From NCBI RefSeq assembly GCF_003987185.1, contig NZ_PIPS01000001.1:62001-126000 (forward strand): a stretch of DNA of 64,000 nucleotides, given 5' to 3'. A program made the translations under genes and the position numbers. This DNA comes from Idiomarina aquatica. GTDB taxonomy: Bacteria; Pseudomonadota; Gammaproteobacteria; Enterobacterales; Alteromonadaceae. Shown one piece after another: positions 5,421 to 15,331 of this stretch; positions within the stretch are counted from its first letter, which is position 1, and each line of letters starts with the position of its first letter. A model generated the notes under the pieces. It saw nothing but the letters and a program-made list of their open reading frames with translations. It did no database searches and had not been told where the DNA came from.

Positions 5421-6314
5421 CTACTCACTCAATAGCCGCGTTGCATCGTGCAGCCAGCCGTGCCCTATCTGTGTTTTCTTGCAGAACTCTTTAAATACGT
5501 GCTCTAGCGGATATACCAGATGTCCGTTAATCGTCTCTATTTTGTTATGGTCACAAAAGTAAACCGTTTTATGGCCTGATTTGAGATACTGATCCAGTTT
5601 TTTAAACTTTTTACCTGCTTTATCGAAACGCCCATAAGTAACCTGCACGGACACCTTTTGCCCGTGTTTATCGACACCCAAAATATCAATGTCTTTCATG
5701 GTTCGACCAACCGGCATCAGAGTATATTCTAGTTGCGGCAAGTCGTTTTCGGCAGCCTTTTGAGTGCGCATATATTCCATACACATTACTTCTTGCAAGT
5801 CTGGTGTTAGACTGTCAAGACTCATGGTTGTATTGCCTTCGACTAAATCAACAACTCGTGAGCCGACTTTATGCCATTGACAAAAAGTGCCTTGACGGGG
5901 CTGAACGGCAGTTAGCGATATCGCCTGCCCAGCGTTTAGTTTGCGAGCTTTTTTAAGCTCGATTGATTTTAGTACTGCTTCACGCGCAGCCGAATCACCT
6001 TTCTGCCTCCACTCACCTCTAAATAGTTCTATCTCGCTACCTGGTTCAACAAAGCCGATTATACCGCCGGGCTTGCCTCGATAGGCTGCGAAAACATAAC
6101 CACCTTTGCGTGCTAAGCCTTTGAAACGTTGCAAATTGGATTTAGCTGACCCTGAATAGTCCCCAGGCTCGAGACTTTCCGAATCAAAAAGCTCGAAATC
6201 ACCGCTATTATCCACTGGGTAATGAATAGCAATTCGATCTTCCTGAAAAAGCCTATTCATTGTGTCTTTACTAATTGCCAGCGCTGAACTGTGGCGTATA
6301 AAGTAGGTTTTCAT
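5421..6314 (-). CDS. Hypothetical protein, possibly nuclease-fold
   Basis: A 297-residue soluble protein I cannot assign. Residues 208-226 (DIDILGVDKHG then VSVQVTYG) resemble the core strands of PD-(D/E)xK nucleases: an acidic residue on one strand and a Q-x-T in place of the usual E/Q-x-K on the next. The missing lysine weakens the case for activity. The ATG at 6314 has an AAGGA ribosome site about 8 nt upstream. The position beside a restriction-modification operon makes a DNA-related role plausible, but that is inference. Confidence 0.6.
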   Translation of the reverse strand: MKTYFIRHSSALAISKDTMNRLFQEDRIAIHYPVDNSGDFELFDSESLEPGDYSGSAKSNLQRFKGLARKGGYVFAAYRGKPGGIIGFVEPGSEIELFRGEWRQKGDSAAREAVLKSIELKKARKLNAGQAISLTAVQPRQGTFCQWHKVGSRVVDLVEGNTTMSLDSLTPDLQEVMCMEYMRTQKAAENDLPQLEYTLMPVGRTMKDIDILGVDKHGQKVSVQVTYGRFDKAGKKFKKLDQYLKSGHKTVYFCDHNKIETINGHLVYPLEHVFKEFCKKTQIGHGWLHDATRLLSE

Positions 6315-12040: not shown

Positions 12041-12808
12041 ATGAGTGACGACGCCGAAAAAGTTGAAGAAAATACAGCAAGTGAAGCCATTGCATTATCA
12101 TGTACCCCGGCCTTAACGGCTTTAGTAAAACCAACTTTTGAAATGCTTGGGAATGAAGTAAGAGACTCAATTAAGGAAAGTATCGACAACTGGCGTGATA
12201 AACGTCGTAGAAAAAACTTGGAGGCTCACTTAGAGGCTGTAAATGCTGAGCTAAATACCAAGGACAGTACTAATCATGAGCCTCCATCGTTAGCTCAAGT
12301 TGACACGGCCGAGGAATGGTTAACTAGCGTTCAAGACGTCGACCCACAGGACGAAGAGCTCAGTGCCATTTGGCAAGGCTTACTTATCCGCGCTGTTAAT
12401 GGAGACAGCATCGCTGATGAGGTACGTCAAACACTTAAGCTATTGACTCCTGAACAAGCAAAGCTTCTCTTTGAATTCAAACGTCGCATTCCCGCATTTC
12501 CACTACATGCAGGTACTGTAGGAGCAAAGGAGCGCTATCTAGCCAAAAAACTCGAAGTAAATAAAGTGCTAGAAAAAGACTACACTTATACGATTATCTT
12601 CACCAGTACAATACTATTATCAACTGGTTTTTTTATTTATTTTTTTGGAAACGTTTTTTACTCGTCCATACAGCCTGTTCTGCTATGGGGCGCGGCACTT
12701 TTATTTACACTGACAAGTACTGCTTTAGCCTTCAGGTTAGGGATCTCACGCTGGCGTCTTTCTTGGCTGGGGAGAGAGCTAATGCGATTAGTTTCGGATA
12801 GAAATTAA
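12041..12808 (+). CDS. Membrane protein with Abi-alpha-like helical signature
   Basis: A 255-residue protein. The soluble N-terminal part carries DEELSAIWQGLL followed by LLTPEQAKLL (about residues 106-160). This resembles the 'DEEL..lW..LL / Ls.eqA.lL' pattern of Abi-alpha (DUF4393) and DUF2806 proteins linked to abortive infection; the link is by pattern only. Two transmembrane segments follow (near 182-205 and 210-232). The ATG at 12041 has an AAAGGA ribosome site. It starts an AT-rich block of four plus-strand genes, 100 bp before the GHKL ATPase gene. Confidence 0.6.
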   Translation: MSDDAEKVEENTASEAIALSCTPALTALVKPTFEMLGNEVRDSIKESIDNWRDKRRRKNLEAHLEAVNAELNTKDSTNHEPPSLAQVDTAEEWLTSVQDVDPQDEELSAIWQGLLIRAVNGDSIADEVRQTLKLLTPEQAKLLFEFKRRIPAFPLHAGTVGAKERYLAKKLEVNKVLEKDYTYTIIFTSTILLSTGFFIYFFGNVFYSSIQPVLLWGAALLFTLTSTALAFRLGISRWRLSWLGRELMRLVSDRN

Positions 12809-12908
12809 CTAAGTTTTCTATTAATCAGCCTGAGGTAAAACCTCTTGTTAACTAATATTTCATAATACTAGGTAGTAACCTTTCACACACCGAAAGACAG
12901 GGAATTCC

Positions 12909-14267
12909 ATGAAATCTAGTGCACGCTTGAGTATTTATGATCTGAAACGAAAAGCAAAACGATTTCAGCGTGATTTAAAAATCAAAACTGCGAAGCGTCA
13001 GAGAATAGCTAGGCAACAGCTTAGATCCGGCAAAGTACCAATTGCAATAAGCTCTATCGTAAGAAGAATAAGTTCACAAGAGCCGAGGCGTAAATACCGA
13101 AAATATGAGACCTTCAAGCTTCCAAGGACATTTTCCTTCTTAGAAGACCCGGAACAAGCACTTAGCACTATACACGAAATCACATCCGCATTAACAAACC
13201 GGAGATGCAGAAGCATTCAGTTGAACTATCAACATTGCAGACGGTACAGTTTAGGCAGTGAAGCTTTGCTCGGAGTATTGGGCCGTGTTATAAAACATCA
13301 AAAACGCACAAATGGCAGAACCGTTACCATAAACGGCGTTTATCCATCCGAACCAAACCATACTGAAATAGTTCGAGATGTCGGTATAGTAAAGGAGATT
13401 GATGCAGATAAAGAGCATCGTGATCTTGCCGACACCAAGCAGCAATTTATTTTTATGAAGGAAAAGACCTCTACAGCAAAGGGTTCCGCGTATGCTCGTG
13501 ATGATAAGAACCAAACTTCTGAAAACTTCGTAAAGTATATTAATGACTGCTTAGCAGAGAGCATAAGCAAAAAGCTAACAGAAAAAGCGTGTAGAACGCT
13601 AAAATCATGTGTCAGTGAATTGCTTGATAACGCTGAACGTCATGCAATGGATAAACAGCAAGGTAAATGGTATGTAAGGGCTCATGTCAACTTTTCTCAT
13701 GAGCATCCTAGTTGTGAAATCGTTATATTTAACTTTGGTAAGACAATTGCGGCCACTTATGATGGCTTAAGCGCTGAGCACTTTTCATACAACCAACAAG
13801 TAAAACCGTATGTTGAGCGGCATATCGGTGTAAGGGGGTTGACTCGAGAAGCATTAATTACTGTAGCGTCGCTTCAAGGAAGAGTTTCGTGCAAAAATAA
13901 CGATGAAAGAAGAACTTGCGGAACAGGGACGGTTGAATTATTGAACTTTTTTCAAGAACTTCATGACGACATATGTTCTTCGGGTTTGATGAAAAATAAC
14001 GATCTGAGACCTTTAATGGCTCTCATGTCTGGTAATACCTGGATTAAGTTCGATGGAACCTATAGACTCTCTTTTACGAATGATGACTGGAATGATGGGC
14101 TGGATGACCGCAGTCTAGAACAAGCAATTTATCCTCTCAACGATACACCCGGTAAGTTAGCTGATCCACCTGATACCGAATTCGTTAAGAGTTTAGATAC
14201 TGGATTTTTCCCGGGAGTTATGATAAACATCCGCTTCCCATTGGAAGTAACCCGGGATCAAGTTTAG
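12909..14267 (+). CDS. GHKL-type ATP-binding protein
   Basis: A 452-residue soluble protein. The N-terminal part is very basic, then a STAS-like or alpha/beta region (about 75-165). A GHKL ATPase domain follows: N-box SELLDNAERHA (E237, N241), a G1-like FNFGKTI (N275), a second glycine motif HIGVRGL (about 307-313) and a CGTGT motif near 338. No phospho-acceptor histidine domain is visible, so it looks like a SpoIIAB-type kinase or a GHKL ATPase rather than a sensor kinase. The start has a GGGAATTCC ribosome region. The STAS-like gene follows after 10-13 bp, a known kind of pairing. Confidence 0.75.
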   Translation: MKSSARLSIYDLKRKAKRFQRDLKIKTAKRQRIARQQLRSGKVPIAISSIVRRISSQEPRRKYRKYETFKLPRTFSFLEDPEQALSTIHEITSALTNRRCRSIQLNYQHCRRYSLGSEALLGVLGRVIKHQKRTNGRTVTINGVYPSEPNHTEIVRDVGIVKEIDADKEHRDLADTKQQFIFMKEKTSTAKGSAYARDDKNQTSENFVKYINDCLAESISKKLTEKACRTLKSCVSELLDNAERHAMDKQQGKWYVRAHVNFSHEHPSCEIVIFNFGKTIAATYDGLSAEHFSYNQQVKPYVERHIGVRGLTREALITVASLQGRVSCKNNDERRTCGTGTVELLNFFQELHDDICSSGLMKNNDLRPLMALMSGNTWIKFDGTYRLSFTNDDWNDGLDDRSLEQAIYPLNDTPGKLADPPDTEFVKSLDTGFFPGVMINIRFPLEVTRDQV

Positions 14268-14280
14268 AATTGGAGGGGTG

Positions 14281-14628
14281 ATGTTGGAGAATATCGATAT
14301 GGCAACGTATAAGATTGAGTTCCGTAGGTTATTGGAAGACGCTCCTGAAAAACGGCTTTTCTCAGGCAGAAGTAATGGAGAAAAGGCTCATGAATTCTTT
14401 AAACTCGATCATGCCGATAAGACCGATTTTTTTGAATTAGAAGTCCCTGAGGAGGTCGTCGTATCGAGCTCATATTTTTTAGGCATGCTTGAAGATATTA
14501 TGCGAAAATATGATAGCGTTGATGAACTAAAGCAACATCTCGACTCTAGCTCTTTAAAGGGTGATACTTTAGCTGAATATAAGCGTGCTTTGAAAAGAGG
14601 CTTCTACACCAACCGTGGCTTCTTTTGA
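14281..14628 (+). CDS. STAS-like (DUF4325-type) protein
   Basis: About 115 residues. The segment FFELEVPEEVVVSSSYFLG matches the DUF4325/STAS-like pattern in which a core strand leads to a serine cluster (SSS-F) at the start of a helix. In STAS proteins this is the phosphorylation or partner-binding site. I chose ATG 14281, four bases after a GGAGG; GTG 14278 is too close to that site. Its gene is tightly coupled to the GHKL ATPase upstream and overlaps the next gene by 14 bp, so the three probably form one operon. Confidence 0.6.
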   Translation: MLENIDMATYKIEFRRLLEDAPEKRLFSGRSNGEKAHEFFKLDHADKTDFFELEVPEEVVVSSSYFLGMLEDIMRKYDSVDELKQHLDSSSLKGDTLAEYKRALKRGFYTNRGFF

Positions 14629-15331
14629 ATTTCCTAGAAACGTGAAGCTATGGTTAGTGCTATTAGTTACTTTAACTAGCACTAGCGCATCCGCATTCAC
14701 GCAAGAAAATAATGAAAAGACAGAGCAGGCTAAGACTGCTTCAGACAATCGCGTTGTTGCCAGCAACAATCCAACTGCTGGACTTCCTTTAACAATAATA
14801 AATATCAACCGTCTCGAAATACCTAACAGTTTGTCTAACACTCAAGTCTCTCCTGCTTGGTGGCAGGACTATCGTGCAATCCTTTCTATTTTAGCAATGA
14901 TCTTATCCCTATCGACAATAGGGTATAATGTCTGGTCGCGAAGTCAGGATAAAAAGCAATCCATTCATGATGAGTTTTGGTTACGGAAAGTTATCTTTCC
15001 CAAAATAATAGAGCCACTACAAGATTTTTGGATGTCCTCCAGAAAGATTCATATTGAGGTTTTTGGAGAGCAGCCCAGTCAATCATCTTTAACACAACCT
15101 AAGATTGACGAGTACAACCTAAAAATATGGAACCATATCGGGGCAATAAGGGACTCTCTGCAAGCTTTGTCAATGGTGTCAAAAAATCTTGTACAGCAAG
15201 CTGAAGCAATAATTGACGAATATGAAGAGGACGTTAACGACATCACAGTGTTCCCCAGGGAACATGCTTCACATTTGCACTTCAAACTACTAGAGTTCCT
15301 TAAAAATGATGTTCATCACGAATATATGTAG
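14615..15331 (+). CDS. Membrane-anchored protein of unknown function
   Basis: A 238-residue protein starting at GTG 14615. It has an N-terminal hydrophobic signal or anchor (residues 9-28), a polar region, a second transmembrane helix (about 88-108), then a helical cytoplasmic domain of about 130 residues rich in acidic and lysine residues. No family is recognised. It overlaps the STAS-like gene by 14 bp, which points to translational coupling and a shared function. A later start is possible because the ribosome site is weak. Confidence 0.5.
   Translation: MASFEFPRNVKLWLVLLVTLTSTSASAFTQENNEKTEQAKTASDNRVVASNNPTAGLPLTIININRLEIPNSLSNTQVSPAWWQDYRAILSILAMILSLSTIGYNVWSRSQDKKQSIHDEFWLRKVIFPKIIEPLQDFWMSSRKIHIEVFGEQPSQSSLTQPKIDEYNLKIWNHIGAIRDSLQALSMVSKNLVQQAEAIIDEYEEDVNDITVFPREHASHLHFKLLEFLKNDVHHEYM

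What the first reader, a model, noticed from the sequence alone, without database searches (positions are those of the whole stretch)
12041..15331. Four-gene AT-rich block: GHKL ATPase plus STAS-like protein with two membrane proteins
The sequence shows a GHKL ATPase without a histidine phospho-acceptor domain, a STAS-like (DUF4325-type) protein coupled to it, a signal/TM protein overlapping the STAS gene, and an upstream two-TM protein with an Abi-alpha-like motif. GHKL kinases and STAS proteins form partner-switching modules such as SpoIIAB/SpoIIAA. Here the module would be tied to the membrane and sits in an accessory region beside a restriction system. I infer a signalling or phage-defence unit not matching a system I can name.
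Basis: partly seen in the sequence, partly recalled or inferred. Interest (0 to 1): 0.75.

Follow-up and report, generated by a model that had tools for sequence, protein, structure and literature searches.

The report
Mobile kinase–STAS switch with membrane partner
Three of the four genes form a small mobile set that stays together in distant bacteria and looks like a protein switch wired to a membrane protein, probably a self-sacrifice defence against viruses; it resembles a system described in 2026 but carries a different end piece.

Summary
The block is real, but it is a three-gene cassette (B 12909-14267, C 14278-14628, D 14615-15331) beside an unlinked gene A (12041-12808). B is a STAS-like domain fused to a SpoIIAB-like GHKL kinase (best fold match Z 10.1). 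C is a STAS-like (DUF4325-family) protein with a serine invariant in 33 of 33 at the apparent phosphorylation position. D is a membrane protein: hydrophobic segment in 31 of 31, long helix into a helical bundle. C follows B in all 33 distinct loci found; D follows in 32 (broken in one; the 33rd is cut by a contig end). Loci lie on plasmids and chromosomes of Proteobacteria and Bacteroidota. One copy sits inside a Type I restriction operon, another follows an Argonaute gene. The anatomy matches VapKSC/CapKS (EMBO J 2026), where an ssDNA-activated STAS-GHKL kinase phosphorylates a STAS protein, releasing a PIN toxin or a promoter; here a membrane protein takes the PIN toxin's place. Most likely B phosphorylates C on damage or infection, freeing D to harm the membrane or arrest growth. 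Layout, predicted folds and conservation are computed; kinase activity, D toxicity and defence are inferred.

The parts
12041..12808 (+). Gene A (255 aa): two hydrophobic segments (185-203, 213-231), weak Abi_alpha resemblance; neighbour, not part of the conserved cassette
12909..14267 (+). Gene B (452 aa): basic N-terminal helix, STAS-like domain (about 60-168), SpoIIAB-like GHKL kinase domain (about 175-450) with E237/N241/H245 box
13131..13133 (+). Codon of B Phe75 (Phe in 28 of 30), candidate for the aromatic ssDNA contact by analogy with VapK F54 / CapK W68 (inferred; not aligned to those proteins)
   Evidence: analogy from PMC13373217
13617..13643 (+). GHKL N-box of B, residues 237-245 (ELLDNAERH)
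14278..14628 (+). Gene C (116 aa from GTG; an ATG at 14281 follows GGAGG and may be the true start): STAS-like, DUF4325 family
14470..14472 (+). Codon of C Ser65 (counting the GTG as residue 1), invariant in 33 of 33; presumed phosphorylation site
14615..15331 (+). Gene D (238 aa; start uncertain, another GTG at 14642): signal-peptide-like helix, TM segment at 88-106 within a long helix 81-150, helical bundle

Best explanation
B-C-D is a mobile stress/phage-defence module that works like VapKSC with a membrane effector in place of the PIN nuclease. At rest, unphosphorylated C binds the cytosolic bundle of membrane protein D and holds it inactive. A signal, most likely nucleic acid such as ssDNA from infection or damage bound by B's basic tail and the groove between its STAS and kinase domains, activates B. 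B phosphorylates the invariant serine of C; C leaves D; D then perturbs the inner membrane or arrests growth before the phage matures. Shown by computation: gene linkage, predicted folds, conserved ATP-site residues and serine, membrane segment. Inferred: the signal, phosphorylation, C-D binding, D toxicity, defence.
For: C follows B in 33 of 33 distinct loci, D in 32. B's GHKL part is closest to SpoIIAB (top four rows, Z 10.1-9.4) and its N-terminal part to STAS domains incl. SpoIIAA (Z 7.1-6.6): the domain order of CapK/VapK without the HTH (PMC13373217). E237, N241, H245, G277, G338, G340 invariant in 30 of 30; Ser65 of C in 33 of 33, while B's own STAS domain has E/Q/N/S/Y at the matching column. 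N-terminal 45 residues of B richer in K+R than the rest in 30 of 30 (mean 35% against 13%). D has a hydrophobic segment in 31 of 31. An operon with a PIN gene in D's place exists (L061: kinase, DUF4325 protein, PIN) and its kinase aligns collinearly with B (hhalign 61%, E 8e-5). Inside a Type I RM operon in L026 and just after an Argonaute gene in L030. On plasmids and beside integrase or phage tail genes.
Against: No experiment. C versus the L061 STAS protein is not significant (1.3%, E 0.039). STAS-row Z values for B lie under 8, the tool's bar for a common arrangement; Foldseek alone gave B no match at E <= 0.001. D's fold matches are generic helical bundles; nothing says that it is toxic. 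Defence neighbours are modest: 4 of 20 neighbours scanned singly, in 3 of 15 loci, matched PADLOC models. No PADLOC match for the cassette itself.
Confidence: 0.5

Rival explanations
1. D is the sensor or anchor, not the effector: its periplasmic/membrane part detects envelope stress or phage entry and signals through its cytosolic bundle to B and C, whose output acts elsewhere in the cell.
For: Window D has a signal-peptide-like start, a non-conserved stretch of about 55 residues and one TM segment, like a receptor. D is the least conserved protein (mean column identity 17% against 32-33% for B and C).
Against: The Bacteroidota D proteins listed have almost nothing before the TM segment, so no conserved outside sensor; no further conserved output gene follows D; in L061 and published VapKSC the same slot holds a toxin.
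Confidence: 0.2
2. A toxin-antitoxin-like plasmid or island maintenance module with no specific role in phage defence.
For: Found on five distinct plasmids, one of 6.8 kb; compact overlapping genes; TA-like logic of VapKSC.
Against: Placement inside an RM operon and after an Argonaute gene; a dedicated kinase is more than simple addiction needs (inference).
Confidence: 0.15
3. A regulator like CapKS: B and C control neighbouring defence genes, and D tethers them to the membrane.
For: Adjacent to RM and Argonaute genes in L026 and L030; CapKS sits beside immune operons (PMC13373217).
Against: C is 116 aa, STAS-like throughout, with no room for the wHTH of CapS; neighbours differ between loci; on the 6.8-kb plasmid no defence gene is annotated beside it.
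Confidence: 0.08

Closest known systems
VapKSC (PMC13373217, EMBO J 2026)
   Same: Three-gene order kinase, STAS protein, third gene; STAS-GHKL kinase without histidine-phosphoacceptor domain; conserved Ser in the STAS partner; found near immune genes
   Different: Third protein is a membrane protein, not a PIN nuclease; sequence identity to the published proteins not measured
CapK-CapS (same paper)
   Same: STAS-GHKL kinase plus STAS partner, near RM and other immune operons
   Different: B shows no HTH, C has no wHTH, and the cassette has its own third gene
SpoIIAB-SpoIIAA partner switching
   Same: GHKL fold (Z 10.1) and STAS partner with invariant Ser
   Different: B carries its own STAS domain; no sigma factor in the cassette; membrane protein instead
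Other DUF4325 modules with a TM third gene (L010 second set, L035, L052, L066, L068, L070; plasmid loci L073, L074, L076, L077)
   Same: Same layout; kinases homologous to B (hhalign 98.6%, E 7e-16, 8 of these kinases)
   Different: Their TM proteins are not detectably related to D (3.4%); my literature searches listed no paper that I recognised as describing them

Membership tests
VapKSC | STAS + GHKL kinase (VapK-like architecture) | tested here: met
   AlphaFold model and VIA-align: STAS rows Z 7.1-6.6 (under the tool's bar of 8 taken alone), SpoIIAB rows Z 10.1-9.4; homologous to kinases of DUF4325 modules
VapKSC | Adjacent STAS protein with conserved Ser/Thr | tested here: met
   C follows B in 33 of 33; Ser65 invariant 33 of 33
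VapKSC | Kinase homologous to a VapK from a PIN-containing operon | tested here: inconclusive
VapKSC | VapC-like PIN nuclease as third gene | tested here: not met
   D is a membrane protein in the window and in the other 31 loci where it is present; no PIN match
VapKSC | ssDNA activation, phosphorylation of the STAS serine, toxin release, phage protection | not testable with these tools
   Needs biochemistry
CapKS | N-terminal HTH on the kinase | tested here: not met
   No HTH in Pfam at E <= 1; model shows one long helix 9-39 and a short one 49-54 before the STAS domain
CapKS | C-terminal wHTH on the STAS protein | tested here: not met
   C is 116 aa; no such domain in Pfam
SpoIIAB/RsbW anti-sigma systems | SpoIIAB-like GHKL fold | tested here: met
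   1tid_C Z 10.1, 132 aligned, rmsd 2.6
SpoIIAB/RsbW anti-sigma systems | Sigma factor as partner in the operon | tested here: not met
   The third gene is D in 32 of 33 loci; none of the four window proteins matches a sigma factor
DUF4325 (PF14213), gene C | Pfam match of the protein | tested here: inconclusive
   Window C none; 18 of 33 family members match at E <= 0.1; profile against other DUF4325 proteins 82.5%, E 1e-5
Abi_alpha (PF14337), gene A | Score over the curated cut-off | tested here: not met
   19.1 bits against 29

The most novel reading that the evidence does not exclude
STAS-GHKL kinase plus STAS pairs are a general plug-in infection or damage sensor, and a large, apparently undescribed branch drives membrane effectors instead of nucleases. 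At least two unrelated membrane-protein families have been recruited to the third slot (D here; the TM proteins of the other DUF4325 modules), so a phosphorylation-released, membrane-acting class of bacterial immunity exists beside VapKSC.
Probability: 0.4. Interest if true: 0.78.

Novelty: new variant of a known kind. Interest (0 to 1): 0.63.

Why it matters
A kinase-STAS switch that releases a nuclease was reported in 2026. The same switch tied to a membrane protein, in two phyla and in some loci inside restriction or Argonaute operons, suggests that the sensor pair is modular and that partner switching, known from sporulation and stress control, is widely reused in immunity. The small cassette and named residues make the idea directly testable.

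Tried and rejected
Gene A as part of the unit: rejected. No match at E <= 10 in ORFs of the other loci held by then; one partial plasmid match (33% over 43% of A) with no gene of B's size in the 8.3 kb shown; only the own genome of 60.

Core stress regulation: rejected. B is absent from 59 of 60 genomes; with the own genome counted, 2 of 369 class genomes (single protein) and 3 of 398 phylum genomes (profile) have it.

Phage-borne relatives: none in the phage collection with B of the window, B of L024 or the L035 kinase; none confirmed in viral contigs. PHROG 3364 matches B at 1.2e-11, but that profile also rings in 8 of 14 control genomes, so I did not use it as evidence of phage origin.

D fold: PDB rows are generic helical bundles (Z at most 9.8, under the tool's bar of about 13 for bundles); no viral match at E <= 0.001. 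Foldseek alone gave B no match at E <= 0.001. PDB sequence search with B or C profiles: nothing meaningful.

Empty site: not resolved. The flanking thioredoxin-like gene is in 2 of 12 other genomes of the genus searched and the TonB receptor has many paralogues.

Promoter/terminator scan: no more than shuffles. Distance correlations between B, C and D (0.77-0.92) are confounded by ancestry and not used. More VapKSC-like operons: the L061 kinase found only its own genome and one fragment among 369.

Sequences of the published VapK, VapS and CapK were not found in the collections I used (not searched by accession); supplements could not be opened.
Full report
What is there. Four + strand genes lie at 12041-15331. 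B and C are separated by 10 nt, D overlaps C by 14 nt, and A ends 100 nt before B. The block is about 41% GC, as is much of the window's first 9 kb, so low GC alone says little.

Is it a unit? With B as query the window's genome is the only one of 60 with a match. With the window, and with the repeat Pantoea records left out, that is 33 distinct loci. A homologue of C follows B in 33 of 33 (seven of them built the profile, the other 26 match at E <= 1e-9). For D the profile matches in 26 at E <= 0.01 (again seven by construction; split in two frames in L017). In six more (L023, L025, L027, L028, L031, L033) an ORF of 165-189 aa with a hydrophobic segment near its start stands in that place. 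In L032 the contig ends 312 nt after C. Hydrophobic segments are found in 31 of 31 unbroken D proteins. A has no match in the ORFs of the other loci. So the conserved unit is B-C-D.

B. The AlphaFold model (mean pLDDT 77.5, 26 sequences) has a long basic N-terminal helix, an alpha/beta domain and a GHKL domain. VIA-align's top four rows are SpoIIAB entries (Z 10.1-9.4; 1tid_C: 132 aligned residues, rmsd 2.6) over residues 175-450, and STAS domains including SpoIIAA match residues 60-168 (Z 7.1-6.6). The STAS rows are under the tool's bar of Z 8, but several unrelated STAS entries agree. Foldseek alone gave nothing at E <= 0.001. N-box residues E237, N241, H245 and glycines G277, G338, G340 are invariant in 30 of 30; F75 is Phe in 28 of 30. 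The first 45 residues hold on average 35% K+R against 13% in the rest, higher in 30 of 30.

C. The window protein has no Pfam match, but 18 of 33 family members match DUF4325, the STAS-like domain, at E <= 0.1, and profile comparison with other DUF4325 proteins gives 82.5%, E 1e-5. Ser65 is invariant in 33 of 33. B's own STAS domain has E, Q, N, S or Y at the matching column (this column match is mine, from the shared motif). I infer that C is the substrate and B's STAS domain a sensor or scaffold.

D. The model (mean pLDDT 76.2, 26 sequences) shows an N-terminal hydrophobic helix, a disordered stretch, one long helix (81-150) that contains the TM segment, and a helical bundle. PDB matches are generic bundles. 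In Bacteroidota the proteins begin with, or shortly before, the TM segment. D is the least conserved part.

Setting. Copies lie on plasmids down to 6.8 kb, between two tyrosine recombinase genes (Pantoea), next to a phage integrase (L029) and near phage tail genes (L009). In L026 the order is HsdM, HEPN-like protein, nucleotidyltransferase-HsdS fusion, cassette, HsdR. In L030 it is AbiEii-like AAA ATPase, DUF4276, Argonaute, then the cassette 45 nt on. In L020 a PLD-type helicase follows. In bulk, 119 neighbouring ORFs (of 376 called in the flanks: those of 130 aa or more within 3.2 kb) match 380 PADLOC families at 1e-5, against 27 for 109 ORFs from 17 arbitrary stretches of five genomes of the same set. 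This overstates the contrast, because one methyltransferase matched two dozen models. Scanned singly, 4 of 20 chosen neighbours matched, in 3 of 15 loci. The association is clear in some loci and modest overall. The cassette proteins themselves match no PADLOC model.

Literature. PMC13373217 (Chambers et al., EMBO J 2026; abstract and sections 11-14 read whole, other passages seen) describes CapK (HTH-STAS-GHKL) with CapS (STAS-wHTH), and VapKSC (STAS-GHKL kinase, STAS antitoxin, PIN toxin). 'Membrane' occurs four times in that text; the passage shown to me is about blotting. Searches for the present combination listed no paper that I recognised as describing it; I judged by listings, and most subscription papers and preprints are not in that library. 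PMC12137116 (passages) concerns among others a GHKL-Shedu fusion; PMC13092281 (passages) names an HATPase only in a figure legend.

Link to VapKSC. The published sequences were out of reach. Among 30 DUF4325 loci fetched from 229 class genomes, one (L061) is kinase + DUF4325 protein + PIN protein (PIN 1.1e-11, DUF4325 3.3e-13); 4 have a separate STAS gene followed by a protein with a hydrophobic segment (L052, L066, L068, L070); 16 have the STAS domain in a protein of more than 200 aa; 9 are other or unresolved (read with 61 and 71). B aligns collinearly with the L061 kinase through STAS and GHKL (61%, E 8e-5); C against its STAS protein is not significant (1.3%, E 0.039). B is clearly homologous to kinases of TM-type DUF4325 modules (98.6%, E 7e-16), while D is not detectably related to their TM proteins (3.4%). 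Of five plasmid records found with the L066 kinase, four have an annotated third gene with a hydrophobic segment; in the fifth (L075) none is annotated, but an open frame there begins with a hydrophobic stretch.

Conclusion. The window carries a kinase-STAS-membrane module, a variant of the VapKSC kind with a membrane protein in the effector slot. Linkage, predicted folds, conservation and mobility are shown by computation. Kinase action on Ser65, the nucleic-acid signal, C-D inhibition, membrane damage and phage defence are inferences by analogy and need the experiments listed.

Noticed in passing
window 12041-12808; L106 4001-4735: Gene A has a partial homologue on a Vibrio europaeus plasmid beside genes annotated as anti-phage Hhe and KwaB-like: A may be a separate defence gene.
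   Followed up: partly
L061 862-2664: A VapKSC-like operon (STAS-GHKL kinase, DUF4325 protein, PIN protein) next to a helicase-like ORF.
   Followed up: partly
L026 6272-15476: Type I restriction operon with a HEPN-like gene and a nucleotidyltransferase fused to HsdS, carrying the cassette between HsdS and HsdR.
   Followed up: partly
L030 5844-12102: AbiEii-like AAA ATPase, DUF4276, Argonaute and the cassette in one direction.
   Followed up: partly
L010 13285-14626: A second, different module (GHKL with C-terminal STAS motif in one gene, then a small TM protein) 880 nt downstream of the cassette.
   Followed up: partly
L044-L051 and similar loci: A common other DUF4325 architecture: GHKL and DUF4325 in one protein of about 340 aa, mostly without a TM gene directly after it.
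   Followed up: no
window 5421-6314: 297-aa ORF on the minus strand between the restriction genes and the cassette, without a Pfam match at E <= 0.001.
   Followed up: no
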